Assembly (NCBI RefSeq): GCF_008831285.2
Contig: NC_045146.1
Location: 1,178,001 to 1,242,000 of the forward strand
Reading direction: 5' to 3'
Origin: Nymphaea colorata
Lineage: Eukaryota; Streptophyta; Magnoliopsida; Nymphaeales; Nymphaeaceae
DNA length: 64,000 nucleotides
Of this stretch, positions 24,120-63,864 are shown piece by piece. Under the pieces are notes generated by a model, which was not told where the DNA came from, ran no database searches, and saw only the letters and a list, made by a program, of their open reading frames with translations. The first letter of the stretch is position 1. Each line of letters starts with the position of its first letter. A program made the position numbers and the translations under genes.

Positions 24120-24150
24120 TTATCTGATTCCGTTTCTCTCCTGCCCAAGA
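23965..24150. repeat. Duplicated segment around the last exon of DMS3
   Basis: The stretch TTTGATTATCTCATTCCGTTCCTCTCCCTGC (key part 23970-24000) recurs as a close copy at 24113-24145, where it covers the last DMS3 codons and stop. Spacing is about 143 bp. Confidence 0.6.
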
Positions 24151-27100
24151 AGAGCCTGACATGTGGAAACAAAAAGAAAACAAAGAGACAGAGAGAAATG
24201 AAACGGTAAAATTGAGACCAGAAGTGTACATTGAAACGAGAACCTGAATTATTAGTTTTTGTCAAGTGACTGAAAACGCTACTCAAGTTCTAATAATTTG
24301 GTATGCTAGAGAAGCTAAAAAGAAGGTGAAGAAAATAAAGGAATAACGGAAGTCTTTATGATGTGAAGCAACCTTCAGAAATAATCACAGCTAGTGGAGC
24401 ATAGCTTTTAGGAGAGCAAAGATTTTCAACACAGGAAACTAAGGCAACTTATATACGGAAACAATGTCTATATTATGAACCTTGCTAAGAATGAGCCACC
24501 ATTTTCTGCAGGGACATATGCAATAGATTACCTTGTCTGCCAATGGAGCACTCTGAGCTAGAAAATTCACAAGTTCCCCTCTTTTCTTGTTATACATTGT
24601 TCTGACATTATCCAAAACAAACTTCTCCCTTCCAATGTCCTCATCTATCCGCTCTCTGTTCCAGATCAACTGCTTAAGTTGTTCCTCGGATTCAAGTATG
24701 CTCAGTGTCGTTGACGAAGCATTCAAACTCACAGGAAACCTCACATCGATGTCTTCCCTAGAATAAGAAAGAAGAGAAATGATTAGAAAACAGATGAGTG
24801 AGTATTCCTGAAGCAAGCAAGTTTTGCATAAACAAAGGATTTACAAACACGCATATACTTGGACCCAAAATTAAAAAAAGGAAATGGAATCTTGCTTTCA
24901 GAGCATATGGCTCACGAAACGGCAAAAAGACAACACCACAAAAAGTTTTAAAGACAATTGTGGAAGACAATTAGACATATGAGTGCCAAAAGGAGATCTC
25001 CTCAAGATTAAAATAACATGCATTGGTTATATTGGCATTTTCAAGAAAAAAATATTACAGAGCATATATAAACAGACAATTGAATATGGTTTTATTACCT
25101 CCGGCCAAGCTTAAACACACCACAGCTTTTAATCATTCCACCATCCAAGGAGAGGGCACCGTCACTTATGTATGGAATAGCAAGTTCCATATCGGCTCTG
25201 GTCCTATACACTTGCAAACGGGAGAAAAGGGCATAAAACAATGTTTCTCTCAACCCATGGCCAGATGACGTAACATATTTCAAATGCATAACGTCCACAG
25301 TAATCATATTCACTGCAAAGCCAAGAAAGCCAGGTGGGTATTCCCCAGTTGGAAGTCTAGGCTTCAACAAATCAAGCCTTTTCTGTGGATCCTCCTTCAC
25401 ATGTTTTCCTACATAAGGCCTGTTCTCATACAAGAAGATGGAAACTCACTCAGTATTTTCAATCCATTATCAAGATGAAATTCCTTCCATACAATATAAA
25501 TTATCACATCATACAATATGCTGATCCACCCAATCCAGTGAATGAAGATGTTAGTCTAGAAAACAGGAATCCTGCACCTCTAATGCTCCTGCTAAAAAAC
25601 AGCAATTTGTTTAAGGATCTTGCCTTAGATCTTCAAGGCAAATTGCCAGGAATCTTCCACTGATAGGTCTTCTGATACTTGTCCCAAGTCCATGTAGGCC
25701 AGATCTTAAGTCTATCTTGCCCTCACCATCATACTTTTCAAGAGCTTTTATGCCTTCATACGTCTTGCACACAATTGCCAACATCTTCTCCAATCCGAGG
25801 TACTCTGAAAAAAGCCTGGAGAAAGTTGTCATGACATGCTAACTATTAAAAAATGCCAAGCGTATCTTCTCTGCTTTTAGTAATCAAACTCTGCCTCATC
25901 AGGTATTTGTAATTAACCAAATAACACAAAAATGTGTGAAGAAGTACACCGACAACATCTATTGTCAAGTTAAAGAAAAGATCAAGCAAAGAGAACTTTT
26001 ACACAAATAACCTGCTAAGGTTATCATCTGGTGCCTTTCCAAGTGTTGCAACTATACCAAGAACATCTTTGAACAAAAGGCAATCCGCTGTTTGCAAGCC
26101 TTTTATCCGACATAATAGACCAGCGGCTCTTTTGTCCTGCAGTAATATCTGATCAACAGTTTCTTGTTCAGCTTGCTTGTTTTCACCATTGTGACAAAGG
26201 GCTTCAGCTTTCTTTGATGAACGATGCGATCGGAGGTTACCTGTTTCAGTGACGGTATTACATGTAACTACAGCTGAAAAATCATCTTGTTTTAGGTTTG
26301 GAATATTTCTGTATCATTTTTCCTAAAGAGCATGAGATAATCTGATGCTTTTGTAGACAAATGCGACATGAAAATAGAGCCATAGAGGTATCAATCGTCA
26401 GATATGACGTGAAGATTGTCTTGTTCTTCTACTAAATGAGATCCCATTCTAAAACAGTTTTCAATGTATGCAACTGCATCACTAATGGGAGAACAAATAT
26501 GCTGCCAACTTTTCTTTGCAAGGGATGAAAAGGGTGATGAAATAAAGATTTTGGAAACTCCAAATTTGGTTGTGCTCAGCTTGTCATGTTTACTAGCAAG
26601 AAAAGGAAATGATCTGCCATGTTTTCCATTGGCTAACCAAAAAATGACCTTTGCATGCCTAGATTTTTCTCCGGGACTGGAATATTGGACTAGAATAAGT
26701 ATCACCAGCAGGTTTAATGCAAATTCATGCTTAACTCAAGAAAAATGGTGCTGTTCAGATTTATCAACCTGTGTGATCCTTGCAAATTAAAACAAACATA
26801 AGAACCTTTGATGTCTTTGATTGAGTTGTCTAAGTTATAAGACTGAATCTTCAAATGTTCTATTTTTTCCTCATGATGTTTGATTTTGTATCCCAGCTTT
26901 TGTAGATCTTCTTCAAGCCTCTGCAAGTAAGCAAGTTAGAAAAACTCAGGAGAATGGGTCTCACCTTCCAAATAATATTATTTGCTTTCAGATGCATGGA
27001 TAAAATCAAGAAAATATTACAATATGTCCCGAGTGAATATAAAGTAATCCAGCAAGGAGACAGCCAACTCAGATGCCCCATGCTCCATTGAAGCATACCT

Positions 27101-27702
27101 TAGTTTGACCTAGGACCATCTCCATATTGCATTCATTTTGCACAGCATTTGTTTTATTTGTAGCCAAATTTCCTCCATCAGATATCACGATGGCCAATTC
27201 TGGATGTAGCACTGTTGAACAGGAAGGAGGGGCTTGACTCTGAACAGCACCAACAAACTGATTTTAATGCACTATTTATTTAAAGTTGAAACTTGAAAGT
27301 TGACATAAAAAGCCACAAACATATCTTTATAATAACAATGGAAGCATTCACACATAACAGTTTATCTTCCTCTTCCTCCTCTCCTAGACAAAGAAATTGA
27401 TGAAAAATCTCAACCACCAAAAAAAGCAACATCAACCTTAACAAATTTCCTTTAAAATTTTACAACATTACACTTCAAGAATTAGTTAAAAAATCAAATG
27501 GACATTAACAAGCTTGGAGTCAGAGGTATCATGGCAATAGTAACCAAAACTTGTGGTCTTAGTAGTCAAAAGCGGCCTATGCTTTAGGCATCCACCCTCT
27601 TGACTAGGCTGCGCCACCTAGATACCTAAGTTTTTTTCCTCATTTTTTTAAAAAAAGGTTTTTACTTTGTTTTTCTCCTATTTCTTCCTCTTCTTCTTCT
27701 TC

Positions 27703-27750
<48 letters not shown>

Positions 27751-28993
27751 TAGTTTTACAATTTCTCATTCATATTCTTCTGCCTTCCCCTTTTCTGTAA
27801 TTGTTTTTTTCTTCTCCATTTCCTTCTCCCTCTTCTCCATCCTCGGTTTTTTTCCCTTCATAAATTATTTTTAGCCTGCCTATAACCCAGGTGCTTACCT
27901 AGGTGCCGCCTAGGCCTTTTTGAAGGGCCAGCACCTAGGCCCGTCCAGTGTCTTCGTCTACTGAGAAAATTCCAACAAGAAACTTTGTCAGCTAAGTTAC
28001 GGAAAACATGGTAGATCCTTCCTCTAATTTTAAATGGCATGTAATACAATCGAGCTGGAAAATTCTTGTCGAAAACAGTAGACCCGAAAAAAAAAACATG
28101 TAACTTGAAGGTGATTAAGGCTTCCCAATCTTTACGGAGTCCGTTTTGCATCAATGCAAGTGATGCTTGAACTTGATCATGCAAAAGTAAGCAAAGAGTA
28201 AAATACACGACAATCGAGGTAGATTTGTGCAAATAAAAGAAAAAAATTAACTTCGATGTACCCACTATGCATAAGATGATCGTGGAGTTCCTTATCCACT
28301 ATCCATTAGATGATGATCGTAACAGACTGGTAGCTTGGTATGAAGAAGACACATTGAACATAAGCAAGGAAGTAGGAGCAGAAATACTATATCGACAGTG
28401 TTTTCCATAAGGTGAATTGGTGAGTACAACAGCACATGGATATTGCATTCAGAAAGAAAGTTCAAATTACAAAGAAGAGAAAGCACTGCAACGGGCAATG
28501 CAGGAAGTTTGCAACATATCCGGAAATATTCTTTCCGCACTTCATCAGCAATGGCTGCCATTTCCAAGTAAAATGTAGCAATGTCACAACCAACTCCCCA
28601 ACAGCAGAGCACAACTGACATTGACAAAATTCCGACGATGAACACAACCAACTGCAGAAACCTTCAATCCCAAGATAACCCATTACAGCAAACACGGCCA
28701 AAAATCAGAAAATCATCCAAGGGTGGCAACGGGAAACCTTCAATCCCAACATAACCCGTTACACATGGGAAAAACCAGAACCCTAGTATTAACCCAAGGA
28801 AAAACCAAACAGAAACCAACTGGGGAGCGACATTTGATCGTATTTACCTCTAAAATTCACGACCACGAAAACTAACCATCCCTAACTGAAGTTTTCCACC
28901 AAAATCACGAAAACTAAGAACATTGTTCGAGGTGGGTGATTAAGAAATCACCTGACTCTGCCGAAACATTGGGGAATTCGACGAGCCCCACAT
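24120..28993 (-). CDS. DMS3: DMS3 (DEFECTIVE IN MERISTEM SILENCING 3), SMC-hinge protein, complete, 433 aa
   Basis: Eight exons: 28993-28952, 27239-27099, 26920-26806, 26240-26012, 25815-25624, 25419-25099, 24757-24532 and 24155-24120. All phases agree (0,0,1,2,2,2,0), and Arabidopsis DMS3 is 420 aa. DMS3 is part of the DDR complex (DRD1, DMS3, RDM1) that loads RNA polymerase V for RNA-directed DNA methylation. Domains: N-terminal coiled coil ([20 protein letters not shown], about 62-100), then the SMC flexible-hinge region with [70 protein letters not shown]-like [19 protein letters not shown] and [12 protein letters not shown], then a C-terminal coiled coil ([16 protein letters not shown]). 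Intron 5 starts GCAAGA, so it is a GC-AG intron. The first exon ([14 protein letters not shown]) is chosen because it ends at GTGATT in phase 0. The GMI1-like gene lies upstream on the same strand. Confidence 0.92.
27540..27960. mobile_element. AGGC-type MITE-like repeat in DMS3 intron 1, with (TTA)n microsatellite
   Basis: One end has GGCCTATGCTTTAGGCATCC and CTAGGCTGCGCCACCTAG; the other has CCTAGGTGCCGCCTAGGCC and GCACCTAGGCCCG in opposite orientation. The middle holds CTT repeats and an ATT/TTA run at 27702-27749. Similar ends occur at 45205-45850 and 49745-50665. No target duplication was confirmed. Confidence 0.5.
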
Positions 28994-30791
28994 GAGAGCA
29001 ACGGAGAGCAAACCGCCCAAAGCACAACAAGCAAGTTATGGGCCTAGCTGGGCCATGGCCTCCAAGAAGTTTAGAAGAAGCGGGTAAAAAAGAGAAATGA
29101 ACGAAGGGGAAGAGTTTGACTGCTACGCTGCAGTACAGCAGTGATGGAAAGTGTCATCAAATTTGATGCCAAATGGGCTCTTGGACTCTGCAGTTTCTGA
29201 CAGGTGACGAACATTTAGTTTGCGTCCGGTGGCGAGTCGGGTATGACCCGATTCATACCTTGCTGAATCCGATAGGCTTCGGATTTGATATGAAGAGAAC
29301 AGATCCGACTAAGTGGTAGGGTCAGATATACAGGGCCTTTCTTTGTTCAGTTCAATGATTTGCTGGGTGTCTCATATATAGAATCCATATTGTTTGTATC
29401 ATTACAAAAAAAAAAATCATTCTTTCTTTACTTTATTATTGTTTATGAAATTACATGCTATATCTACATGGCTTGGATATCACACGAATTTTTACACCAA
29501 CCGCTGGTCCGACCAGAATTCCAATCAAAATCTTATATTTTTAATGTAAAAATGCATAAGAATATTATTTTCTAGTGTATGAAACAGATTAGTTTCAGAT
29601 TTGGTTTATTGTTGTTGTTGTTGTTTTGCCATTAGCAAAGCCCATCGTCACCGTACTTGTCAAGGTAAAAACTGTAATGGGTAGCATTGAAAATGCATGA
29701 AAACTAAGATCCAAACTGAATATTTCATATTCAAACAGATTTGGATTTAAGAGTAACCTTAGTGAAAGTTGTGCATATCTCGTTTCACAGATCCGGTTTT
29801 GATTCTCATAGAAAATCTGACATGGTTTGGTGTTGGAGTTCCAGTCAACTCCTGCTAAGCGTCCCTGGATCTCTTAGGTATAAAATTCCTAATGCATCCT
29901 CAACACTGATATTTAAGAGTCGCTTCTACCAATTGATATAGAGAAGAGCACTTCGGATCACAACCTTAATCCACGGATGCACAGCGTTTGAATGGAGACA
30001 GCTAAAAACAATACAAAATGGGTAGGAATCAAGTCTGATAGAGGAAAAAACTTCAAAAGGTTGTTGATTCTTGGAGTCGAGTCTGAATGTTTCCTAGCTA
30101 CTCTGACAGGTTCGAAGTATTAAGACAATCAACGGTTTCATTTAGTTGTATCTGCATCGGTTTCGGCGCCATATATATCACTTGAGGCAGATACGTTGGC
30201 TTGTATCATGCTCGTTTTCGATTTTTTATTTGAAAATTAATTAGTAAATATTTAAAACATTTCCTGCTTTCCCACGCTCTCCCGTTCGTCCAAATATGGT
30301 TCTGTGTATTGGCATTGACATTCAGAATCTGTCTTATCATAATGGCATTACGGTGTGCACTGTTGCTCTTAGATAATTTGTAAATTTCAAGCTCCTTTTT
30401 GCTTTTACAAATTTTGGCTCAAGTTTCTTGGGTTCAAGATGGTGGAGCACTTACGGCAGGTTGAAAAATGCTCCCATCTGCTCCGCTTATATCCAAAGTT
30501 AAATTAATTAAGTACTAAAGTCAGCAGAGTTGGGTTAAGCCCATGAACCAGTACCTTTAAAATTGCATTGACAAAAGGACCAGAAGGAAATTTGAAGAAC
30601 ATGCACTTCTTGAGGAAATCAAGGAGTTCTCCTTATTTGTGAAGGAGACAAGACTCCAAGTTCTCATAATATATGTCAAATGTATTTAGTTTCTAACAAA
30701 TGAGTGGGGTGCGGGTGCTCGAGCTAGCATGGATGCAGATGCAGCAATTTTCAAAAAAAAAAAAAAAAAATATTAGGCGCACGTGTGGTGA

Positions 30792-30826
<35 letters not shown>

Positions 30827-31400
30827 CTATTGTATAGTTAATTAACTGTTTAACAGTCATATTTATCTATATCTATATTTTAGTTATTATGAACCATTTG
30901 CACTAGAGCTAGTTTAGTGAGGCGTGTGTCTAACATAATCAGATTTCGGTTGACCGTAAGGGACGTGCCATGTAGAAGAAGCACCAGCACCTGATGTGGG
31001 TGCGGCGGCGCTTTAGGAGCACCCAGACCCAGGTGACATAGGAAAGCAGGTGCATAATGAGAGGAAAGAGGACATTCATCGGGATATAATGAGTTCTCCC
31101 TTCACCTTTCTCTCGAGCTTTGCAGTCGATAAATAGAGTTCGCTTACATGGAATGGAGGAGCCTCGAGTGAAAAAAGAGGAGAGTATATTTCTGCTGCAG
31201 GAGGATTTGGAAAGAGAAGTTGAAAACTGCTCTGTCTAATTAAATGGACCCAATGCCAAAAATGCCTGGTTCTGAATGGATTTGCTGGGACTTCCTTTCA
31301 AGAATGATGGGATTTTCCTTCAAGAATGGTGGAACATTATTAATAAGTGATATTACTAATCCGACAAAGGAGTCTTTGAAAATAAGAAAATGCTGCAGGG
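28994..31400. other. Region upstream of DMS3, toward GMI1; no gene seen
   Basis: The first few hundred bases are the DMS3 promoter/5'UTR side. At 29215-29340 and 29690-30130 there are GGATCCGA/ATCCGAC-type motifs of dispersed-repeat style. Poly-A at 30751-30768 and a (TA)n run at 30793-30822. No transcription unit identified. Confidence 0.4.
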
Positions 31401-31404
31401 AACT

Positions 31405-31640
31405 AACAAATTATTCTTAGTCTTCATTCCATGGAAAGAGGGAGCAACAACGTCAAAGATTTTGACTTGTGGCTGAATGTAACTTGTTTGAAATTATCAC
31501 CAAAGTCTTAGCGGAGATCATCAACTCTATACCAAGGTGCATTCCTCAAGGGTCATAGCTTTCAAGACAATATCTACCTTGTGCATGAAGTAGTTGAAAT
31601 GGTAAAAAAATGTAGCTATATTTTAGTGATAGTTCGTGAA
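31405..31640 (+). pseudogene. LINE (L1-type) reverse transcriptase relic
   Basis: Broken frames read FIPWKEGATT then KDF-like, KVLAEIINS and CIPQG then FQDNIYLVHEVVEMV. This follows the order of plant L1 reverse transcriptase (IPKK...KDFRPISL...KVLANRL...QSAF..GRSIQDNI..AHE). Stops and frameshifts show it is dead. Limits are approximate; neighbouring sequence to about 33250 may be more of the same element. Confidence 0.55.
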
Positions 31641-33589
31641 AGCATGAGGCATAAGATAGAGAGTTAACATGATGTTGGAGCAGACTACAACACATACTTA
31701 TCAAGAAGGTGCTCTATAATTAAGTTGGCGGAAGCCGATGGCTTGACATTGAGTTGTACTTACTGAGAGGATGATACTCTACAAGACAGAAGAACCAACC
31801 GTTAATTTTATAAAAATGCCGGATAAAATTGAGACAAGATCGAGATATCATATCTGCAAATGAAAGTATTTTCAATACCTTTAATCTTTCACTGCAACCC
31901 CACTGGGGATCTCCTCATATATATATATGGATCGTTCAACTAGAGGGGGTCCCAGCATATTCACTTGCCGAAGGACAAGGCATGAGCAGGACAGATACTA
32001 CTTAAAGTAGCAGCCAAGAGTAATACATTTTTGGATTCCAACAGGAGAATTCCGAGATTGGGGCATAAAGACAAGAAATACCAAAGCTTTCCTGATTAGT
32101 TCTTGCCAAGGGATATAAAAAGAGATGGACTCCAAGGCTGATTCTACAGTATTAAGTAGAGCACACTATCAATGGTCTTAATAGCATCAGCTCAGCAGCA
32201 CAGACCAAACTTGGTATACGCTCTATTCTGAAGTGTGATCGTAAAAGCAGTCCTCAAAAGAAATTGGGCCTCTGACTCTAGAAGGCCAAACTCTTGGCTC
32301 GATATACAGAGAGACCCAAAAACTAGCTCCTTCCCTGTAGGTAGGATGGGATCTCTTGCTGAGATCAGGATGGTGGCTTTCAAGTCTGACCATCTGTAGC
32401 AAAAACAAATGTAGGGAGTTTAGCAGCATGTCTCTCATGAGAGAGGCTATTTGTCCTCAAAAGCCCTTGGCCTTTTTACCAGTGATCTTGTTTAAAGGGA
32501 GCTTTCCTAGAACTCCTTCCACTCTATATTTTGCTTCCCAAGCTTTCCTTGCCACACATGATCGGTTAAACAATGGGTGATCTCCCTCCCGAGCAGGTGT
32601 GAAATGGGTTCCAACAGTGAAGAAACTAATACACGTATCTTCCTGCAGTGTTCTATATCACAAGTTGCTTGGATCAAAGTGATGAAACCTTTTGCCAGGA
32701 AAAGAGTGTTGTAGCCTTCATTTATGGAGATGTGGAGAAAATAGTCAAGCGTATCAATTCAAGATAACACTATTAGAAGGGCTTTAGGTTGTAGCTTGGA
32801 GTCTATGAAAGAAGGGGAGTGTTGAAAAAGATGGTGAAAGTAGAACTCCATGAGAAATTGGTAAAAATGCTTTATCAAGGCCCAAGGGAAGTGGCAGTTC
32901 CACGCATGACAGGGAGCAAAAACTAGGTGGTTGCTACATGGAGGTGGTTGAGGGAGTGGGACTTAGCTTTCAAGGATGAGCTGTCGTGAGCAACTTCCGC
33001 AAACTGGCTTTGCCGTAAGAGGCTATCAATGTAAGTGGCTCCATGTTGGAGGAAACCATTGACGGAAGTTAGAACCAGAGACAGGAGTAATTAGCAAGCC
33101 GTCCTTATTTTTTAGGCATCTCGAATGGACTCACTGGAAACAACCGATAATGCTCTCAAAGGGAAAAGGGTGTTGCTAAAGAAGCTTGCTACGGTTTTCT
33201 CTAGGGTGCTTTCGATAGCCCTAGATTTAAGATCCAAGGGCCAGATCGACTAATAAATTAAGGGTTTTAACAAACTTTTGAAGTCCAAAACCATGGTTTT
33301 GGTATTCAGGTTTTAGATTTGCACAAGAAATCATGGCGGAAAGAAGCAATAGCTGGCGGGCATCAGCCATTGCCGAGAAAGAGAGAGAACCCCATATACA
33401 CCCATTAAGGGTCTCGGAGTAAGGGAATTGAGGGTTTGTATAGAGCAGAACAAGTAATCCTCAACGAATGTCGAGAGTTTCAGACTTCAGAGAGAGGGAG
33501 AAACCCTCAAACGGTTTTGACAAGGTCTAATAAACCCTTAATGATCGTCAAGAGTTGCAGATAGAGACTGAAAACCCTCGATAGCCATT

Positions 33590-33590
<1 letters not shown>
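31641..33590. other. Probable degraded remainder of the LINE; no intact frame
   Basis: The longest frames are below 80 codons and none shows endonuclease, RNase H or zinc-knuckle motifs clearly. The bulk base composition (AAGG/TTGG-rich, moderate GC) resembles decayed coding sequence. Assigned by proximity only. Confidence 0.3.

Positions 33591-33629
<39 letters not shown>
33591..33629. repeat. (GA)n microsatellite
   Basis: About 39 bp of uninterrupted AG repeats. Confidence 0.95.
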
Positions 33630-33631
<2 letters not shown>

Positions 33632-33944
33632 ATGAAAGCCACTGGAGGACCCTCTGTTTGTTTGCCGTCGTTGCCATTGATGTTGGCTACTATTTTCTTA
33701 CATGATGCGGTCGCCGCCGCTCGCGATCACCTTCGCCTGACCACTCATACGTTTACATTTAAAAGGAACTACCCCTAAAATCTCCTACCAGAGGTGAACC
33801 ACGAGCTTTTGCTGCCTGGCACCGGCCATGACCCCAACAGGTGGGGCCTCGCTGCTTCGCCTATCTCATCCTCCAGACCCCTCGGCGTCTACGGGAATTG
33901 AACAAATAGAGATTGCCCGTGTCTTCGAGATTTCTCCACATTAC

Positions 33945-35420
33945 CAAGGACCGTTTGGTCGGGGGTGAAATTTAACTTGGTAAGTTTACCATGGTAAATT
34001 TTTTTAGAAAAATTTAGTCGATGAAATTTCACCTTCTTTCAATACGAGACCCTGTTTGATTGTCGGATAAAATTTAACGTGGTAAATTTAACCATGTTTG
34101 ATGAACATAAAGAATTTAACATGATAAAAAATTTAACCTGAAAAATGTTAAATTTAAAAAGAAAATAATAGAAGAAAAAAGAAATGGCAGAAGCCCAGTT
34201 CAAACTGCAGACAAAAGAAATTAAACTTTTGACACAAAAACTAAAATATGTAAGCAACATATGTTAACATTCGCCTGTCCAGATAAGTCTGCATCTGTTG
34301 GTTGATGTGCAAGCAACAGGGTCTTACAGTTCATGTGCAGGTCATGGTTCAAGATTAAAAATGGTAATGTACGAGTGCTGAATGAGAGCTCCAGAGCTCC
34401 ATCTTATGCGTAACTTAGATTGTGCAGTGAGTAGCTTTGGACTGTAGGTTGGAGAGGGGCAGTCTACATGCTTCCCTTTTAGCTCCTGCAAGCCAGTTGC
34501 AGAAGAACAGGATCGAGATGTACCGAGCATCTGTTACTGTGCATACCATGCTTCCAACATACATGAAGTGTCCCTCCCTCTCTCTCTCTCACACATTTCA
34601 AGTCATCATGATGCATATATCATCCATTTTAAACATATGCATGTTCAACATTATAAGCCAAAATGAACAAGCGTTTAATGAAGCAGGAGTCGAAGCTCTG
34701 ATGATGGGAGGCCGCAAGAGTCAACAGGGAAAGATGTCAAGGATGATGTCCGAAATAAAAAAACAGTGAATTTAGTATTTCTACACTGATAAGCAGCAGG
34801 AGCTAAAAAAATCAAAAGACAGAAAATGAGCCACAACTTAGGGCATCAAACGCCCAAATCAGACGCCTATGCACCTCAACTACAGTGGCAGACTGTCCCT
34901 GTGGCATAGGGAAATGAGCGACAACTTAGGTTATTAGAGAAAGGGGAAAAGGGAAGGCATCAGAGAGAGAAAGGGAGAAAGCGTACCGGCGGTGGAGCGG
35001 AGACGTGACGGCGCAGAGGCGACGGTCTCTGTGGCAGAGGGGAAGAAGCGACAACTTAGGGCATCAGAGAAAGGGAGAAAGAGAGGGAATCAGAGAAGGA
35101 GAAAGGGAAAAAGCCTACCAGCGGTGGAGCGAAGAGGCAACGGCGATGATGCGACCTCCTTCCACTCTGGTGCGATGTGAGAAGGCTCGAGGGAGGAGGA
35201 GCTGCGGTGCGATGTGAGCTGCCGAAGCAGGTCGTGCGCTGAGGAGGAAGGTCGAGCGCCCGAAACAACGAGCGGGTGGAATTCCACCCGCTCCCTTTTG
35301 GGTTAAACGGGTGGAATTCCACCCCGTTTGACGGGATTTCAATTGGACGGGTGAAATTTCACCTGCCCATACAAATTTCTCCTCCCTCGATGGATTTCAC
35401 CCGCCCATCAAACGGGCCCC
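33945..35420. mobile_element. MITE-like element with GTTTG...GGTGAAATT terminal repeats
   Basis: The left end reads GGACCGTTTGGTCGGGGGTG and continues AAATTTAAC. The right end, read inward, is GGGGCCCGTTTGATGGGCGG then GTGAAAT. A further GTTTGAT...GGATAAAATTTAACGTGG copy near 34050 suggests nested or repeated ends. The right part (about 34930-35220) has a duplicated GGGAGAAAG...CTACC(A/G)GCGGTGGAGCG segment, GC-rich and exon-like. No transposase. The target duplication could not be fixed, so the superfamily (Harbinger or hAT) is open. Confidence 0.5.
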
Positions 35421-35551
35421 AAGGGAATGCACGAAACAGCATTGTTTTAAGATCCAAGCATCTAAAATCAGCGTCAAATCTACAGGTACCGATGTGGTTG
35501 GGCGAATTTTCTCACGCTCAGGCAGCAGTTTTTCAATAAACTGGGTCTGCT

Positions 35552-36519
35552 GAATTTGATAAAGTTAGTACTTGATATAATACCTGCTGGGCATACATTG
35601 GCTGACTGCTATGGACGAAAATGCAATATTATTTGTGAATTTCCAAAAATACCCTTGGTTTATGCAAACAGTTTCTTAGAAACTGGAAGTTGGGAAGGGC
35701 AAGCAGAGGCAGATGTAAGTGTGAGATGCATGGGGCATGCGCCCCACTGAACTCATTATAAAACCTTGTTTTTAATGATTGGATCCGAATAGATTTAGGT
35801 TTAACCATATAGATCATCCCCACTACCCCAAGGCCAATTGAGAATTTCATATATTTAATGCTCCATAAACAAAAATCTCCGGCTCCGGCAGTGATGGCAA
35901 CTCGTGTCCAAATTTCATGAAATATATACACCATTACGTTAGAAGGCTCTTCTTATTATGTCACACCATAACTCACCAAATAAATCTATCTGCATTGTGA
36001 ATAGTCATCAACAATGGTAAAAAAATAATGTGCACCGGTGAGTTATGGTGTGCCATAAGAAGAGCTTTCTAACGTAATGGTGTATATATTTCATGAAATT
36101 TGGACACGAGTTGCCATCACTGCCGGAGCCGGAGATTTTTGTTTATGGAGCATTAAATATATGAAATTCTCAATTGGCCTTGGGGTAGTGACCCAAGTCT
36201 CGTGGGGATGATCTATATGGTTAAACCTAAATCTATTCAGATCCAATCATTAAAAACATATATGGTTAAACCTAAATCTATTCAGATCCAATCATTAAAA
36301 ACAAGGTTTTAGAATGAGTTCAGTGGGGCGCATGCCCCATGCATCTGACACTTACATCTGCCTCTGCTTGCCCTTCCGAACTTTCAGTTTCTAAGAAACT
36401 GTTTGCATAAACCAAGGATATTTTTGGAAATTCACAAATAATATTGCATTTTCGTCCATAGCAGTCAGCCAATGTATGTCCAGTAGGTAATTATATCAAG
36501 TACTAACGTTATCAAATTC
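35552..36519. repeat. Large inverted repeat (arms about 430-480 bp, loop about 59 bp)
   Basis: The left arm, 35552-35977, is nearly the exact reverse complement of 36037-36519. For example ACCATTACGTTAGAAGGCTC (35931-35950) pairs with GAGCTTTCTAACGTAATGGT (36063-36082). The right arm is longer because it carries a small insertion (GACCCAAGTCTCGTGG near 36191) and a 43-bp tandem duplication containing GGTTAAACCTAAATCTATTC (about 36217-36302). The loop is 35978-36036. No long frame crosses it. It would form a very stable hairpin if transcribed. Foldback transposon or recent palindromic duplication. Confidence 0.93.
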
Positions 36520-37258
36520 GGTTTTTGAATCGAGCAACCACATCAACTTAAATATCTTTCAATCCCTGAATCAGGCAGACAGCTCGAACGTTTGTGAAGC
36601 AAAAGAATCATATCAGTCACCCTTCATGCAAAAAAGCCAAAATTGCTACACTTCCTCAAAATGCCAATTTGCTATAGAAGCATGGCAGGTTTGACATCGT
36701 TGGTTTTTTCCCTCTTCTTGCAAGCGCTTATGTTGCAGACCTCACAAATGACTGCAAGTTTGATTAAAGGGAGCACTTGATGAAGCCAACTTATTTCCTG
36801 CTAAGTGAATTCATATTTACACCAATAATTTTTAACAGTGGGTTAAAATCTTCAATATTATTTAGCATGAAAAGCTATTCACTAAGACTTGCTGGGTCAG
36901 CAATCTTAAAGTCGATAATTTGAACATAGTCAACGTTTAACATTTAATACACATCAAACTATAAACTTTGTAGGTGAACGTTCACACTTATGAGCTTGAA
37001 AGACCCCCATTCCCTCTACCTCCGAGGTCTTCAGCTGTGTCGATCTCAGCAATGGCAACTGTGTACAATCTACCCTATCACACCACCTTAAGACACAGAA
37101 CTATAGACCTATGAAAATCAAACTAAAAGACATTTCTTACATGCCCCTAGCCTGACCTGTTACCCAATGCCCTTTGAAGCTAGCTAGAGACTTTACTATT
37201 GAAACAAAAACCCAGTGGCTTCCCTTGTATTAAGAGAAGTAGGCATCTAGAATTAATA

Positions 37259-37295
<37 letters not shown>

Positions 37296-46139: not shown

Positions 46140-46180
<41 letters not shown>

Positions 46181-48764: not shown

Positions 48765-48839
<75 letters not shown>

Positions 48840-51800: not shown

Positions 51801-54800
51801 GAAAAGGTCTGAACAACCAATGCCCTACAAGGCAAAGAAGACACAATTGCACATTCTCTCATGCAAAAAAAAAACAAAAACTTGCTGGACATAGGCAAAA
51901 AAGAATGCAAGATTCAAAGAAATAAATTACACCATAGTTTGAGGAAGAAAGAAACCGGCAATAAAATATGCAAATAATTAATTTCCTCTCTAGTACATCG
52001 GAAACCAAAACTTTAAAGGGTGAAAAAGAGGAAATTTCAGAAGAAAGTTATACCCCAAGTGCCATAGCCCCCAGTCACTTTTACAAGACCACTAAGATTG
52101 ACATATCCATGCTCGTCAACCTGAATTAGAAGATAAAGATCTCACGGTTATGATATTACAATATGTACATCAGTTACTGAAAAAGCAAAACATTCTGAAG
52201 TGGAAAATACATGCTAGGAACCAGTTCTTCATGAAAATGATTAAAAAATAAACTGGATTAAGAATGACTTTTCTTCCACAACTCATGGTCCTATCTAATA
52301 TCACAAAAAATGTAATAGCATATTATAATGCAAACCAATTAGGTCCAAAAAAAAAAGACCAGAAGACAAATTCTGAAAATTTACAAATTTTGTCAGGAAC
52401 ATCTTTATACCAAAAAATGAGGAAAAATCATACTACTTTAAAAATTATATTAACTACAAATAGAGCCAGAAAATCACATTAAAATGGCCATCAATTTCAT
52501 GAAATGTCAAATGGACAACAAGAAAATATTATCCTACAAACAAAATGCACTTTTTCATTCAAAATAGTTCAAACTAACAACTTAAATTACTCTCACTACC
52601 AAACGGAAATACAACAAATAAGCTTCAGTGCATATACCTTATTCCTTGAACTCTTGAAGAACTTAAAGCTATAAAAGTTTTTTTCTTTTTTTTGTTGGAG
52701 GTAGAATGGGGTCTATACAAAATATAGAGAAGCCCAAATTTTGGTTTAGACTTTTAAAGGTATCAAAATATTTCCTATATTGCACTTTATATTCAGCCTT
52801 AAGAAATTTATGTAACCTTAAACGGTTAAACCACAGCCACGAACATTGAAAACACTTTAGAAAGGTCATGTTTTTATTAAAAATAGTGTTAAGATGTGTT
52901 TATATTCAGTTTTAGGTTTAAGAGGGTACTTTTGTAATAACATTTGCTTTAGATGGGTCTCTTGTATCTTCTCACTCTCCTCTAGTCTATATAAAGAGGA
53001 GTTAGGGCAGATTTCGAGGTTAATCAAAATATAATTCTTTCTAATATTATCATGGTATCAGAGCTCCAACCGTCTCCTCCTCGGCGCGTCGTCGCCGATT
53101 GAGCGGCGCCACCCGCCGCCTGACCGCCAGCCGTCGCTGTCATCTTCGCCGCCGCCCGCCGTCGCTGTCATCCCTGTCTTCTCCGCTCGCCGCCGCCGCC
53201 CGCCGTCGCTGTCATCCTCGCCGCCGCCGCCCGTCGCTGCTGCTCCTCCGCGCCCGTCGCCGTCTCCGCTGCTCCTCTGTTGCTCCGCCGCTGCTCTGCA
53301 CACTGCTGCTCCTCCGCTGCACGGTGCTCCGCCGCTGCTCTGCACACTGATTTTCTTCTCAGCGTCTTCGCTGTCGTCTCTGCTATCTCTCTTCGTTCAG
53401 CTCTGTTGCTGCTTCTTCCAGCCGATCAGACTTATGGATTGCTGCGGGCGTTACCTGCATATTGCTTCATGATAAGCATGTTGTCTTTCGATATGTGATT
53501 GTATTCTCTTTGCCTGCACTTCCTATTCCGTGGCTCGGTTTCCTCCTTTGTATTGAAAGATGTCTGAAATTAGCAGTGGCGCTAATACCTCTTCCTTTGT
53601 ATCGTCGGGAGAGATGAAGAGTTCCCCATTTTCCAGCATTATCACCAAAATGGATGGGGGTAATTACGAGATGTGGGCAATGCAAGTAAAAAGAACCTTG
53701 ATCGCTCATGAGAAGGAACATCTCATATTGGAGCCCGAGCCCGTACAGAAGGTAGGAAAATATACTACTTGGTTTAAAGATAATTCGTTGGTTATGGTGT
53801 GGATTGTTGGTACTCTTACTCAAGACATTGCAAATGAAGTCTTGCATAAGGAAAGTGCAAAGGATATGTGGGATTCCCTTGCAGCCACCTATTCACAAGC
53901 AAGGAATGAAACAAGAATTATGCAGCTTCATCATGATATTCATCAGATGCGCCAAGATGGTCGACCTCTTCATACTTATTATTCTAGTCTCAAGTCCATG
54001 TTTGAGAGACTAAATAGCTACTTTCCTGCATGTAAGTGTGACCAACAAAAGGCATATAGGGATATGCTTATGGTAGGGGTATTTCTCTCTGGATTAGACT
54101 CTGTTTATGAATCAACAAAGAATCAGATGCTCACTAGTCCCTCGATTCCTCCTATTGATGAGGGTTATAGTAGGCTAAGCAGAATTCCAATCCCTGCATC
54201 GACTGTTCTTGATACCACTTCTGCTATGCTTGCTACTCGTGGCAGAGGTGGGTCCCTCTTTGCCAGAGGACGAGGATACCGTGGCCGTGGCAATACCCCT
54301 TCGCGCCCAGTATGTCAGTTTTGTCATCGCATTGGTCACACTGTGGATAAGTGTTGGCAGAAACATGGTCGTCCAGCTGTTGCAAATCAGACTGTATTTA
54401 CTGATTCTCCAGAGCAGCCTAAGACTCAGCATACTGCTTCCTCCAGTGAGTTACGTGCAGATGATATTATTTCTCAATTGAGAAACTTGATTGGAGATAG
54501 AACTCAACAAGCTCCTGATCCGACCACCTCTACTATCACTACTGCTGCCAGTGCGTCTTCATCTGGTATGTATTCTGACTATACTCCTGCTACTGACACT
54601 ACAGATTGGCTCATTGATTCGGGTGCATCGACACATCTCTGTGGAGACAAGGCACAGTTTACTTCATATGTCCCTGCTCCACCTGGTCGCTCGGTTATTC
54701 TAGCAGATGGCAAATATTCTCCAGTTGTTGGACATGGAGAGGTCCACCTTACTTCATCATTGCCGTTGCAACATGTTCTTCATGCACCAGAATTCCCACA

Positions 54801-60800: not shown

Positions 60801-63800
60801 GGAGGTGAAAGGGTTGACGATTCCCTGAAAGCATAGATGGAAGGATAGAGTGGGGAATCCGCCCATTTAACACACGACTAGACATGCGGTTAATCAAGTA
60901 TGCACTGGTAAAAACAACATCTCCCCAATCATGTTTGGGAAGATTCCTTTGAAACAAGAGGGCTCTGGTGACATTAAGCAACTGGCGATTTTTTCCTCTC
61001 AGCGACCCCATTTTGAGGGGGGGTATAACTACAAGATGTCTCATGAACAAGTATATTTTCAGTTCTAACACCCCCAACCTCAGTCTGACCAGTGTTCACA
61101 GTAGTGGAAGATGATTCAGCCATGACCACAAATCAATACTGCAGAGAGACAGGGCTGCGGCAAGCGTTTCTTGGCACGGCCCAAAGAACCAACGGTAGAA
61201 GAAGACAAGCTAGGCGACGGCGGACCGCGACACCAACACGAGCGGCGCAAGACGGGACGAGAGCAGCGGCAAGCGGCAGAGATGGCGGCGATGCTGGTGG
61301 CGACAGAGACCGTCGGGTGAGCAGCAGGGCAGCAACGCTGTGCAGCAGCTCGACTTCAGTGGCAGAGAACAACGACAAAGAGTCGAATGAGAAGGGAGCT
61401 TCGAGTGATGCAGCAAAACGCTGCCGCAGGGAATCGGGCGATGGAGAGCATCGACGCCGGATTTGGCAGCGTCTTGCGATGCAGGCAGCAGGCGATGGCA
61501 ACGCTGGAGCCAATGGCATAGAGTGACCTTGATAGCACAGGAGACGTCACTCCTCTATCGACGCACGAGAACACACGGCAAGCGGTCGATGGCAGATCTC
61601 CACGAGTTCCACGGGGCGACACCAACAACACTGAAACTGCCGGCGACAAAGCAGTAGGCGTTGGGTTCGGGCAAGAGACGGCCAGCAGGCGTCGGGCCTC
61701 CATCAGAACTCCACGGTGGCAAGGAGGGCGACAGAGGATCTTCTCCCAAACAGTGACAAGGGATCCTCTGTCCAATCTGAACAGTGACGATGCAATCCTT
61801 CCTCCAACTCGAATACGGTAGAAAAAAAAAATCAGAACTCACGTGGCTCTGATACCATGAAAAAACGGTAAAAGCAAGTAAAATGATGAACACTCACGGA
61901 TGTAACGTGGAAAACCCCTCAACTAGAGGGAAAAAACCATGGGTGAGGAGGACTGGTGCCCACTAGCGACCAGACACTCTCTCTCATAAACTTTCATTCA
62001 CACTGAAAATTAGGGTTTACACAAGTTAAGTAAGGTCATAACCACACACTGGATCGAGTCCAGATCCTGACCCAGATAAGAGACCCAAATACCACATATG
62101 TCAACATTAACCACTGACAAGAAGGAGCCCACATGCCACTACGTACAAAAAAGTAACTAGTTACAAGATCAGAATTATATCAAAACACTGGTCCATCAAC
62201 AAAATGTTGACAGTTCCCCCTGATGCATTCTATTGGTGCAAGGAAATGCTGGTTTGCCCCTGCAGAATTAACACTGTTGTTCAATATAGAGACACCCTTC
62301 ATCAAAATCAGCCACCAAACAACAAAAAAGGATATCCATTTAAGCTTCCTAAAACAAGCAAGCTAAACATCGAATGCACAGCTGCGAATAAAATAGTTTT
62401 AGTCTTTCAGACAACTACTTAAATACAGAAAAGAAAATCAAGGAAATGCAAATGTGATCTCAATGATCGTTGAAGGCACTAGAATGCAATCAATTTTAAA
62501 ACAAGAAACACATGAAAGAACGTATATATAGAGTAAGCCAGAGTAGTGCAGTCAAAATTCAAAGTGAGTTTCTGACTCCATACCTTACGTTTCAAACCAA
62601 TAGTGTCTTGAAGAGTCAATCCTTGCAACTCAAAGCAAGTTTCTGTTCCCTTCTCAACATGATTACCATATGCATCTAGCATCTGAGGCAATTAACAAAA
62701 ACAAGATGAACCATTAAACTTGACTTTCATAGATACACCAGATTTTCATTAAGTGTGAGGACAAGCTCCTCCAATATTTGTCATGAGCAGGAAGACGGTA
62801 ACTAATTTGAGTCACTTTACACAACATACCTATAAAGACGGAGTCACAAGAAAGAATATTGGCAATTGTTATTAAAACCCAGAGTTTAAATTCTGAAGCA
62901 GTTCGAAAGAAATTTTCACTTCAAAGAGTTTTCAGGAGCAGGAAACTTAAATATCTTGATAGAGAAACGAATATTTTGATCATCCTTTCCATGCATGAAT
63001 TTTGTAGTTTTTACCCATGACTCTGGCAAAGCATTATTTATGTTTATCCTAGAATAGGTTCAAACGTAAAACTCAAGATAACTGTAATAAAAAAAAAATC
63101 TAAATGCAAGTCATAAAGATATGTTTGGTTTTTAATACTGAGAAAACCTGTAATACTATAGACATCTGGTTCGTTTTTTCAGTATAACTGAAACTAACAG
63201 ACAGAGGCATATCATACATAGCAGCATCCAAATGTCAGCAAACAAAGAAAACAGCAATCAAATTAGCAGAATTTTTTTTTATTGTACAAATGCACCCGCT
63301 CGCCTCCTCACCTCAAATTTGAGTTCATGTATCACATCGCCTGGGCGCAAGGACGACTCGAGTTGCAGATTAGGTAGCAAATTGACATGGCATAGAACAC
63401 CAGGAATAACTGTCATGCAGAAATTGTTGTTTTCAGGAGAAAGCAAGAGGCAGCAGTGAAAGAATAACAACATAAGAATGAAGTAAATGAAAACAGCAAA
63501 CCTTGGCATGGAACACACACAGACTTATAATGAGAGCATATTTCCAGAATTGCTTCATAAGAGGGTCTAATCAAATCCAGACTATGGCACTTAACCAGCA
63601 AATCCTGACAAAAAGAGAAGATAGGAACCTTAAAGCACAATGACGCAATAATAATTTTCTCCAGCTAGCAAGAAAGAGAAACTCACTTTAATCTCTAAGA
63701 TCATCTTATCAGATGAAAGGCTTAATTTCAGCTTCTCCTTCTTAGTTAGTGTTGATCCTTTAACCCCTAGCTTGATGTATAATTCTGGAATACTTAGAAA

Positions 63801-63864
63801 AGGCATCCTATTAGAATATACATCAAAACATGCAACTGAAAGATGTTGAATGCACGTCCCAACC
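37766..63864 (-). CDS. GMI1: GMI1-like protein (SMCHD1-type, SMC flexible-hinge), C-terminal 13 exons; partial
   Basis: Exons: 63864-63687, 63604-63502, 63409-63312, 62682-62584, 52120-52054, 48395-48322, 48247-47981, 47873-47724, 40912-40798, 40502-40295, 40186-39995, 38901-38587 and 38018-37766. All splice phases agree and give 705 residues plus stop; the N-terminal GHKL ATPase part lies right of the window. GMI1 is induced by DNA damage and acts in somatic homologous recombination and double-strand-break repair in the nucleus. Landmarks: [75 protein letters not shown], coiled coil [22 protein letters not shown] hinge [65 protein letters not shown] and [10 protein letters not shown], then a helical tail [16 protein letters not shown]. 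Two introns are very long (10.5 kb and 6.8 kb) because of transposons. All donors visible here are GT. Confidence 0.88.
38980..38998. repeat. Short (ATT)n run in a GMI1 intron
   Basis: About six ATT units followed by T-rich sequence; intron 38902-39994 otherwise has no feature except a TA patch at 39693-39708. Confidence 0.85.
41850..43260. repeat. A/T-rich repeat cluster in the 6.8-kb GMI1 intron
   Basis: Two copies of CCGTATTATACCCGAGAAA (about 42151 and 42572), followed by CTTGCTGTTTAAAAC and CGTTGCCGTATAAAAC respectively, and repeated CACGTTTTTT/AAAAACG motifs in both orientations. The end near 43230-43250 (CGATATTTGTGACAATACC) matches the repeat in KELP intron 1. Probably nested MITEs; no coding. 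Confidence 0.5.
43261..45204. other. GMI1 intron DNA, unassigned
   Basis: Between 43440 and 44060 the sequence has moderate complexity with polymerase II terminator-like, LTR-like wording (GCTTTGGGTGTTTGGCAAGC and then CACCCTTGTAAGTAAAAGTC), possibly a retrotransposon remnant. No protein motif was found in any frame. The rest shows nothing definite. Confidence 0.3.
45205..45850. mobile_element. AGGC-type MITE-like repeat, copy 2
   Basis: Left end contains CACCCAGGCAGGGCCTAACG and CCTAGGCAGGCCTAGGC; right end contains CTAGGCGAGTTGGTGCCTAGG and GATCTAGGCGAGGCC. The A/T-rich centre has repeated TACACAACAATATATACTCAA units (about 45590-45650). Ends not exactly resolved. Confidence 0.5.
46070..46735. 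mobile_element. GGTACC/GGTACG MITE-like repeat, copy 2
   Basis: Left end GGGCCGGTACGGGTACCGG and CAGGTACGG; right end ACCGTACTGTACCGGGTCGG in opposite orientation. A (TA)n run lies at 46143-46176. Same style as 5546-6787. Sits in the long GMI1 intron. Confidence 0.5.
46736..47723. other. GMI1 intron DNA, no feature
   Basis: A/T-rich, only short frames without domains. Confidence 0.4.
48474..48623. repeat. 75-bp tandem repeat (two full copies) in a GMI1 intron
   Basis: CAACCAAGTATG starts at 48474 and 48549, and a third CAACCAAGT starts at 48624; each unit contains TTCTAATAAAACATAAACTG. Few differences between copies. Confidence 0.9.
48733..48836. repeat. Compound low-complexity tract: CT, poly-C, then (TA)n
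   Basis: CT repeats, about 18 C-rich bases (with one A), then roughly 68 bp of TA with one GA interruption. Such a run is length-variable and hard to assemble. Confidence 0.95.
48850..49075. repeat. Small foldback/MITE-like block with ACCAGG hairpins
   Basis: Stem 48921-48931 (CAAAAACCAGG) pairs perfectly with 48948-48958 (CCTGGTTTTTG). ACCAGGTTTT recurs at about 48981 and 49019. The right side GGGTTTATCCAAACGCCACC is of a type found at MITE ends. Limits tentative. Confidence 0.5.
49745..50665. mobile_element. AGGC-type MITE-like repeat, copy 3, carrying a plastid trnF fragment
   Basis: Left end GTCGCTAGGTGCAGCCCATG and GCCTAGAGCCTAGGCGC; right end CCTAGGCATAACTAAGC, CTTAGGCGATGCAGG and ACACCTAGGTGCAC. 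A TGTATG motif at 49734-49739 and TGTATGTA at 50658-50665 may be remnants of an 8-bp duplication. The centre contains the trnF piece at 50022-50088. Non-coding. Confidence 0.5.
50022..50088 (+). pseudogene. trnF-GAA: Nuclear copy of chloroplast trnF-GAA, 5' end missing
   Basis: The stretch GGTAGAGCAGAGGACTGAAA followed by ATCCTCGTGTCACCAGT and ATCTGGTTCCTGGCA matches chloroplast tRNA-Phe(GAA) as I know it. It retains D arm, anticodon arm (ACTGAAAAT, anticodon GAA), variable region, T stem and 3' acceptor strand. The 5' acceptor strand (GCCGGG) is replaced by GACTAA-like sequence, and the T loop TTCAAAT has become TGCCAAT, so no functional cloverleaf is possible. Confidence 0.88.
50666..52053. 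other. GMI1 intron DNA, no feature
   Basis: Short frames only, with no domain. The frame at 50764-51126 overlaps a minus frame and looks incidental. Confidence 0.4.
52887..53052 (+). repeat. 5' LTR (166 bp) of the Copia element
   Basis: Begins TGTTAAGATG, ends ATTATCA. Holds a TATA box (CTATATAAAG at 52988) that would place the RNA start in the last third of the LTR. Confidence 0.93.
53560..57778 (+). pseudogene. Copia gag-pol, interrupted by one frameshift at a G8 run
   Basis: The first frame runs from ATG 53560 to 56742; the second frame carries on to the stop at 57776-57778. Features in order: gag UBN2-type region (about residues 25-220), zinc knuckle [14 protein letters not shown], protease [10 protein letters not shown], pre-integrase zinc site (H..H..CESC), integrase core with [16 protein letters not shown] and [10 protein letters not shown], reverse transcriptase with [44 protein letters not shown], and RNase H with [18 protein letters not shown] and [11 protein letters not shown]. 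The frame changes at about 56644-56651, in GGGGGGGG. Copia elements use a single frame here, so this is a homopolymer length error by mutation or sequencing rather than a normal signal. Confidence 0.93.
57786..57999 (+). repeat. 3' LTR of the Copia element, with a 49-bp extra tail
   Basis: 57786-57950 corresponds to the whole 5' LTR (165 bp, ends TTATCA). It is followed by GTGTATGTGA and then a 39-bp second copy of the LTR end (TCGAGGTTAATC...ATTATCA, 57961-57999) that matches the 5' LTR end exactly by eye. The target duplication lies after this tail. Confidence 0.9.
58005..58924. other. GMI1 intron DNA between two Copia elements
   Basis: A/T-rich. At 58440-58760 there are repeated GGATCC/ATCCAA-type words like those at 29690-30130, probably a decayed dispersed repeat. 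No coding. Confidence 0.4.
58925..62106 (-). mobile_element. Second Copia element (minus), internally deleted and 3'-truncated
   Basis: Read on the minus strand: LTR end near 61858 followed by a primer site TGGTATCAGAGCC (61857-61845), a gag start [16 protein letters not shown] (about 61122), joined within about 30 codons to the integrase C-terminal part ([28 protein letters not shown]), then reverse transcriptase in several frames ([46 protein letters not shown]) and RNase H ([20 protein letters not shown]), ending near 58925. No 3' LTR was found. Stops and frameshifts at several sites (59440, 60115, 60589). The 5' LTR probably spans about 61858-62106, its start TGTTGACATATG being an inference. 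Confidence 0.85.
61123..61845. other. GC-rich leader of the minus-strand Copia element
   Basis: Lies between primer site and gag start. It gives long overlapping open frames on both strands through high GC content only; none has a domain. Confidence 0.6.
62107..62583. other. GMI1 intron DNA next to exon 62584-62682
   Basis: A/T-rich, no feature. Confidence 0.4.
62683..63311. other. GMI1 intron, no feature
   Basis: Ordinary A/T-rich intron with poly-A/T tracts (63090, 63272). Confidence 0.6.

What the first reader, a model, noticed from the sequence alone, without database searches (positions are those of the whole stretch)
24120..63864. DMS3 and a GMI1-like gene sit in tandem and share intron positions: a record of how DMS3 arose
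Both genes are on the minus strand, with the GMI1-like gene upstream of DMS3 (8.8 kb between its stop and the DMS3 start). From the coiled coil to the C-terminus their gene structures match: an intron in phase 0 before the coiled coil, phase 1 after it, phase 2 at LS-R, phase 2 at LED-R/S before PY, and phase 2 after the hinge. The coiled-coil exon is 115 nt in both and the next-but-one exon is 192 nt in both. The simplest reading is that DMS3, a core part of RNA-directed DNA methylation, came from a tandem partial duplication of the 3' half of a GMI1-type repair ATPase, and this genome still keeps the pair side by side.
Basis: partly seen in the sequence, partly recalled or inferred. Interest (0 to 1): 0.88.

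Follow-up and report, generated by a model that had tools for sequence, protein, structure and literature searches.

The report
Silencing gene beside its likely parent
In a genome that looks like a water lily's, a gene needed for RNA-directed DNA methylation sits next to a larger DNA-repair-type gene whose last part it matches intron for intron, so it probably arose as a tandem copy of that part without the motor domain.

Summary
The window lies in a 407.8-Mb assembly that fits Nymphaea colorata. DMS3 (28993-24120) and the 3' part of a GMI1-type gene (63864-37766) lie head to tail on the minus strand, 8,772 nt apart. From the coiled coil on, all five GMI1 introns coincide with DMS3 introns in position and phase. 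Beyond the window the GMI1 gene continues into GHKL-ATPase exons (about 70 kb in all). A second intact DMS3 on C13 has the same exon plan but no GMI1 within 39 kb upstream or 36 kb downstream. DMS3-GMI1 Ks (2.6) is near saturation, and Arabidopsis DMS3 is closer to both water lily DMS3s than to this GMI1, so the duplication is ancient; the two DMS3s (Ks 1.05) are of about the age of the published whole-genome duplication. Best reading: DMS3 arose by DNA-level tandem duplication of the coiled-coil/hinge end of GMI1, and this genome kept the pair. Homology and shared introns are shown; that the adjacency is the original one is inferred, because no other plant genome could be searched. DMS3-GMI1 hinge homology was known; my searches found no report of the tandem pair or the shared introns.

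The parts
28952..28993 (-). DMS3a exon 1 (42 nt, ATG)
   Evidence: the C13 paralogue also has a 42-nt exon 1
27099..27239 (-). DMS3a exon 2 (141 nt; no detectable similarity to GMI1 exon 8)
26806..26920 (-). DMS3a exon 3, coiled coil, 115 nt, phase 0 in, phase 1 out
26012..26240 (-). DMS3a exon 4 (229 nt)
25624..25815 (-). DMS3a exon 5 (192 nt), followed by a GC-AG intron
   Evidence: the GC donor is also in the C13 copy
25099..25419 (-). DMS3a exon 6, main hinge exon (321 nt)
24532..24757 (-). DMS3a exon 7, returning helix (226 nt)
24120..24155 (-). DMS3a exon 8 (36 nt with stop); the intron before it is absent from GMI1
63687..63864 (-). GMI1 exon, most upstream one modelled in the window (178 nt)
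63502..63604 (-). GMI1 exon (103 nt)
63312..63409 (-). GMI1 exon (98 nt)
62584..62682 (-). GMI1 exon (99 nt); the following 10.5-kb intron holds Copia-type sequence
52054..52120 (-). GMI1 exon (67 nt)
48322..48407 (-). GMI1 exon (86 nt)
47981..48247 (-). GMI1 exon (267 nt)
47724..47873 (-). GMI1 exon 8 of the window model (150 nt), the last one with no detected DMS3 counterpart
40798..40912 (-). GMI1 coiled-coil exon, 115 nt, phase 0 in, phase 1 out
40295..40502 (-). GMI1 exon (208 nt)
39995..40186 (-). GMI1 exon (192 nt)
38587..38901 (-). GMI1 main hinge exon (315 nt)
37766..38018 (-). GMI1 last exon, returning helix and stop (253 nt)
28994..37765 (.). spacer between the GMI1 stop and the DMS3 ATG; longest listed ORF 110 aa; no further DMS3 or GMI1 match at E below 0.1 (ORFs not scanned against Pfam)
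18299..21767 (+). KELP-type gene (DEK_C + PC4), convergent neighbour of DMS3a; ends approximate

Best explanation
DMS3 is a truncated paralogue of the GMI1-type GHKL-ATPase/hinge gene, made by a DNA-level tandem duplication that took the exons from the coiled coil to the stop codon. The break would lie in the intron before the coiled-coil exon, and the copy gained two short new 5' exons and its own start. The protein kept the hinge dimer and its short coiled-coil arms and lost the ATPase in cis. By what is known in Arabidopsis it works as a dimeric scaffold that binds RDM1 and DRD1 (the DDR complex, for Pol V recruitment), with ATPase activity proposed to come in trans from MORC6. The water lily keeps parent and offspring side by side. 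A later duplication, probably the Nymphaealean whole-genome duplication, gave a second DMS3 on C13. Shown: homology, shared introns, adjacency, great age of the DMS3-GMI1 split, GHKL exons upstream in the GMI1 gene, second DMS3 copy. Inferred: that the adjacency dates from the founding duplication, that the duplication was partial, that the DMS3 pair comes from the WGD, and DMS3 function in this species.
For: (1) DMS3a matches Arabidopsis DMS3 (6ois_C) at E 1.9e-109 and the GMI1 C-terminal part matches it at 4.6e-54; DMS3a and GMI1 are identical at 133 of 352 positions. (2) Five of five GMI1 introns in this region coincide with DMS3 introns in position and phase. (3) Same strand, 8.8 kb apart, no long ORF between. 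(4) The neighbour is a GMI1-type gene: GHKL pieces on the same strand upstream, no other locus listed, HATPase_c_3 E 3.6e-13 over cut-off. (5) In the unrooted four-sequence tree the two water lily DMS3s pair together (other topologies p-AU 0.02 and 0.04; 14 columns for, 2 and 2 for the others), and 54 of 338 ungapped columns are shared by the three DMS3s only. (6) Ks is 1.05 for DMS3a-DMS3b and 2.64 for DMS3a-GMI1; the published WGD peak is about 0.9. (7) The five shared introns show no convincing similarity between the paralogues (best E 0.023, a 12-base match), as expected for an old event. (8) A retro-derived copy would be intronless, as the spliced GMI1 fragments on C1 are. (9) KELP lies next to DMS3a on C9 and SKIP8 next to DMS3b on C13; papers give them the Arabidopsis locus numbers AT4G10920 and AT4G10925, which suggests neighbours there. 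(10) RDM1, the DMS3 partner, is encoded (C1:18674731-18675087, E 3.8e-42).
Against: No other plant genome could be searched, so ancestral adjacency is untested. Of seven flank pieces tested, three have copies elsewhere and none of these at the other DMS3 locus: Agenet on C4, the bHLH-like gene on C1 (weaker on C12, C9:20.5M, C6), the SKIP8 SnoaL part on C1; the other four have no further copy and say nothing. The WRC motif's best other match is on C5. GMI1 was not found around DMS3b, so the pair is kept at one of two loci only. DMS3 exon 2 shows no similarity to GMI1 exon 8 (shuffle p 0.62), so the 5' break is not directly seen. The direction GMI1 to DMS3 rests on the literature. An unrooted tree with one GMI1 cannot show DMS3 nested among GMI1s. 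PMC10082083 lists DMS3 candidates in pine, against an origin confined to angiosperms.
Confidence: 0.72

Rival explanations
1. The paralogues are truly related and share introns, but the adjacency is secondary: GMI1 (or DMS3) moved next to its paralogue later, in the water lily lineage only.
For: GMI1 is near only one of the two DMS3 loci; the flank genes with further copies do not link the two loci; pieces of GMI1 have moved about in this genome; in Arabidopsis the genes lie on different chromosomes (AT3G49250 recalled; AT5G24280).
Against: Landing next to its own paralogue in the same orientation, out of some 31,600 genes, is unlikely by chance. The moved pieces seen are fragments of about 290-360 bp, not 70-kb genes. 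DMS3 is next to KELP or SKIP8 at its two loci, so at least DMS3 does not look newly placed on C9.
Confidence: 0.17
2. A full-length tandem copy of GMI1 was made first and its 5' half was lost afterwards, rather than a partial duplication.
For: Equally compatible with the shared 3' introns and the adjacency.
Against: No remnant of the GMI1 exons held in the window was seen in the 8.8-kb spacer, nor similarity of DMS3 exon 2 to GMI1 exon 8; after so long a time remnants would be erased, so this is weak.
Confidence: 0.3
3. A recent, Nymphaea-specific tandem duplication.
For: Adjacency alone.
Against: Arabidopsis DMS3 is closer to both water lily DMS3s (51 and 49%) than the neighbouring GMI1 is (38 and 33%); Ks is near saturation; introns have no convincing similarity.
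Confidence: 0.02
4. DMS3 arose by retroposition of a GMI1 transcript.
For: Spliced GMI1 fragments exist on C1.
Against: DMS3 keeps all five GMI1 introns of the region at identical sites.
Confidence: 0.01

Closest known systems
Arabidopsis DMS3 (DDR complex subunit; PDB 6OIS/6OIT)
   Same: E 1.9e-109 over residues 30-417 of DMS3a; hinge 126 of 200 positions identical, no gap in the hinge; first dimer strand similar and the G339 glycine present (numbering offset of 3 inferred).
   Different: Two DMS3 genes here; divergent N-terminus; one lies beside GMI1.
Arabidopsis GMI1 (AT5G24280; GHKL ATPase with SMC hinge, Bohmdorfer 2011 as cited in PMC4607528 and PMC5651269)
   Same: GHKL ATPase pieces upstream and coiled coil + hinge at the C-terminus on one strand.
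   Different: The Arabidopsis sequence itself was not available for comparison; the water lily gene spans about 70 kb with Copia-type insertions.
Mammalian SMCHD1
   Same: ATPase-plus-hinge architecture (PMC4628070, PMC5651269, passages).
   Different: No SMCHD1 structure was matched by sequence, so relatedness was not tested here.
Canonical SMC1-4 hinges
   Same: Hinge-type dimerisation reported for DMS3 (PMC6718625, passages).
   Different: PMC6718625 reports four loops in DMS3 that differ from SMC1-4; GMI1 aligns to the DMS3 hinge with three gap columns in 200, so these loops are probably shared with GMI1.

Membership tests
DMS3 | Hinge flanked by short coiled-coil helices, without an ATPase | tested here: met
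   433-aa model matching DMS3 through both helices and hinge, no GHKL or ABC match in Pfam
DMS3 | Closer to Arabidopsis DMS3 than to GMI1 | tested here: met
   179 of 353 against 133 of 352 identical
DMS3 | RDM1 partner in the same genome | tested here: met
   C1:18674731-18675087, E 3.8e-42; presence only, binding not tested
DMS3 | Role in Pol V recruitment/RdDM | not testable with these tools
   needs genetics or biochemistry
GMI1 / SMCHD1-like | GHKL-type ATPase in the N-terminal part of the same gene | tested here: met
   PF13589 E 3.6e-13 on pieces from C9:1253150-1285802, same strand; joined mRNA not shown; a genome scan with the PF13589 model alone did not list this locus
GMI1 / SMCHD1-like | C-terminal SMC-type hinge | tested here: met
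   match to DMS3 hinge 4.6e-54; no SMC hinge model rang in Pfam; fold prediction not obtained
GMI1 / SMCHD1-like | Orthology to Arabidopsis GMI1 | not tested
   sequence not available in the tools
Tandem duplicate pair | Adjacent, same orientation, homologous, shared introns | tested here: met
Tandem duplicate pair | Adjacency dating from the duplication | not testable with these tools
   no other plant genome searchable

The most novel reading that the evidence does not exclude
The water lily preserves the birthplace of DMS3: a tandem, ATPase-less copy of the GMI1 hinge end arose on the angiosperm stem, was recruited with RDM1 into the DDR complex, and has stayed beside its parent since then. 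The hinge loops that DMS3 uses to hold RDM1 and DRD1 were inherited from the GMI1-type hinge rather than invented for RdDM.
Probability: 0.5. Interest if true: 0.68.

Novelty: new member of a known kind. Interest (0 to 1): 0.52.

Why it matters
DMS3 is one of six RdDM proteins reported as restricted to angiosperms (PMC4607528), though a pine study lists DMS3 candidates all the same (PMC10082083), so where it came from is not settled. A surviving tandem pair with identical introns names the parent, the likely mechanism and a place in the genome to look in other lineages. It also predicts that DMS3's special hinge loops predate RdDM use, which can be tested by asking whether GMI1 hinges bind RDM1 or the DRD1 peptide.

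Tried and rejected
Recent tandem copy: against it are Ks, lack of intron similarity and the identities. Retro-origin: rejected by shared introns. DMS3 exon 2 as a diverged GMI1 exon 8: no support (shuffle p 0.62 for DMS3a and 0.73 for DMS3b). A decayed GMI1 copy near DMS3b on C13: none found in 80 kb. The C10 and C1:278k hits as remnants of a WGD copy of GMI1: thought unlikely, they are matching fragments of about 290-300 bp (exon, intron, part of the next exon) with nearly the same borders. Plant relatives in viral contigs: none. Pfam and NCBIfam: no model recognised these hinges. SMCHD1 structures: not matched even with a three-sequence profile, so no outgroup root. Fold prediction: never started, machine full. 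A tree script with bootstrap timed out and was replaced by topology tests with 5,000 replicates, for which the program warns that at least 10,000 are needed for a reliable AU test. Broad literature searches with loose terms gave nothing further on this pair in their listings.

Full report
What is there. The window is C9:1178001-1242000 of a 407.8-Mb assembly in 783 contigs. Size and long contigs fit Nymphaea colorata (409 Mb, 14 pseudo-chromosomes; PMC7015852, passages read); the identification is an inference. On the minus strand lie an eight-exon DMS3 gene (28993-24120, 433 aa) and, upstream of it, the 3' part of a GMI1-type gene (thirteen exons, 63864-37766, 709 aa modelled), both with open frames and splice signals throughout, one of them a GC-AG intron. 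The spacer is 8,772 nt; its longest listed ORF is 110 aa, and it holds no further DMS3 or GMI1 match at E below 0.1. Its ORFs were not scanned against Pfam, so a gene of short exons is not excluded. A genome search with window 29000-33000 listed 69 matches (40 of 82 candidates scored), 65 of them on one simple-repeat-rich stretch.

Shared structure. From the coiled coil on, the proteins are identical at 133 of 352 positions (BLASTP of the whole models, E 1.4e-64), and all five GMI1 introns fall on DMS3 introns in position and phase. The coiled-coil exon is 115 nt and the exon after next 192 nt in both. Under uniform placement the coincidence has probability 5.5e-13, or 9.7e-11 without the intron at which I began the alignment. 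This adds to the homology that introns were inherited, so the duplication went through DNA. DMS3's last intron is its own.

The neighbour is a GMI1 gene. Beyond the window, pieces of a GHKL ATPase lie on the same strand between C9:1285802 and 1253150, and the search listed no other locus. I had put the query together from these pieces in genomic order, so their order is not an independent result; that they match HATPase_c_3 positions 1-108 at 3.6e-13, above Pfam's cut-off, is. With the window part the gene spans about 70 kb and contains Copia-type insertions. A scan of the genome with the HATPase_c_3 model alone listed six other places and not this gene, presumably because its ATPase is split over short exons.

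Other copies. The searches found one more hinge gene, DMS3b on C13:7609473-7613509, with an intact frame, exon lengths 42, 150, 115, 229, 192, 321, 226, 36 against 42, 141, 115, 229, 192, 321, 226, 36 in DMS3a, and the same GC-AG intron. No GMI1 match at E below 0.05 apart from DMS3b's own hinge was found in the 80 kb around it. GMI1 fragments occur as a spliced piece across three exons in two copies on C1 (76 and 74% identity), and as an exon-intron-exon piece on C10 and C1 (87 and 89%). Genome searches score only the best candidates, so there may be more.

Age and relationships. Identities over the coiled coil to C-terminus are: DMS3a-DMS3b 245 of 370, DMS3a-AtDMS3 179 of 353, DMS3b-AtDMS3 172 of 353, DMS3a-GMI1 133 of 352, DMS3b-GMI1 115 of 352, AtDMS3-GMI1 124 of 338. 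The unrooted tree pairing DMS3a with DMS3b is best; the two alternatives have p-AU 0.021 and 0.044, from 5,000 replicates, which the program calls too few. NG86 Ks is 1.05 for the DMS3 pair, Ka/Ks about 0.25; DMS3a-GMI1 is 2.64 and DMS3b-GMI1 is saturated. The N. colorata paralogue peak is reported at about 0.9. Since Arabidopsis has its own GMI1 and its DMS3 is closer to the water lily DMS3s, DMS3 was most likely separate from GMI1 before the two lines parted, and the DMS3 pair is of about WGD age. PMC4607528 (passages) finds DMS3 only in angiosperms and cannot tell gymnosperm sequences from GMI1; PMC10082083 (passages) nevertheless lists three pine DMS3 candidates, and no RDM1.

Neighbourhood. 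DMS3a's convergent neighbour is a KELP gene (DEK_C and PC4). DMS3b's is a SKIP8-type gene (F-box and SnoaL pieces). Papers give KELP as AT4G10920 and SKIP8 as AT4G10925 ([quoted passage not shown] by their numbers they are neighbours in Arabidopsis. This fits two reduced copies of one segment DMS3-KELP-SKIP8, with GMI1 kept only on C9. Against it, of seven flank pieces tested the three with further copies have them elsewhere: Agenet on C4, the bHLH-like gene (named by eye) on C1, the SnoaL part on C1; the WRC motif's best other match is on C5. I give this line moderate weight.

How it works. In Arabidopsis, DMS3 dimers formed by the hinge bind an RDM1 dimer and a DRD1 peptide, with two beta strands and G339 at the dimer interface (PMC6718625, passages). 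In the alignment the first strand reads FDAIC in Arabidopsis, FLAIC in both water lily copies and FFVIC in GMI1, and the glycine that I place at G339 (chain number minus 3, an inference) is present in all four. GMI1 aligns through the 200-column hinge with three gap columns, so the four loops described as distinguishing DMS3 from SMC1-4 are probably shared with GMI1 and older than RdDM use. The loop borders were not in the passages read. MORC6 has been proposed to supply the missing ATPase to DMS3 (PMC5651269, passages). RDM1 is encoded in this genome.

What is new. Hinge similarity of DMS3 and GMI1, and the lack of an ATPase in DMS3, are in print. Two papers in the library hold both names (the same two), and the passages found in them mention neither a tandem pair nor shared introns. 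DMS3 with Nymphaea gives one geminivirus review, seen as a listing only; DMS3, hinge and SMCHD1 give one paper; AT5G24280 with DMS3 gives none. The library lacks most subscription journals, so the DMS3 and GMI1 discovery papers were not read. PMC6624907 (passages) shows DMS3 collinearity and gene structures in figures that I could not see.

Verdict. The origin by tandem duplication is the best explanation, but the decisive comparison with other early angiosperms could not be made here.

Noticed in passing
G000:C1:26588547-26588889 (+) and C1:28360497-28360845 (-): A spliced fragment of GMI1 covering three adjacent exons without introns, in two copies sharing longer flanking sequence, so a retro-derived piece was probably later duplicated with its surroundings.
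   Followed up: partly
G000:C10:9666854-9667144 and C1:278414-278712: Two copies of one GMI1 exon-intron-exon piece (about 290-300 bp, 87-89% identical to GMI1) with nearly the same borders, as if captured by a mobile element.
   Followed up: partly
window 25622-25623 (-): The DMS3 intron after LED-R uses a GC donor; the C13 copy has the same GC donor, GMI1 a GT donor. A possible marker for dating.
   Followed up: partly
window 8757-11359 (-): Reading frames with Agenet and DUF7028 domains, some 13 kb beyond the DMS3 stop; the pair recalls plant PHD/acetyltransferase proteins of the anti-silencing IDM1 kind (recalled, not tested).
   Followed up: no
window 1438-2073 (-): A WRC-domain reading frame; its motif has 25 listed matches in the genome, itself included, seven of them in one stretch of C5.
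   Followed up: no
window 35581-36489: A near-palindrome of about 0.9 kb in the spacer between the two genes (inverted arms of 231, 57 and 136 nt, 97-99% complementary), probably a foldback-type element.
   Followed up: partly
window 53000-58000 and 58900-61100: Two Copia-type sequences inside one 10.5-kb GMI1 intron, lying in opposite orientations (read by eye).
   Followed up: no
G000:C13:7600728-7647879: DMS3b lies between genes that by eye look like a bHLH factor and CNX3/MoaC; the Arabidopsis orthologues are, from memory, close neighbours on chromosome 1.
   Followed up: no
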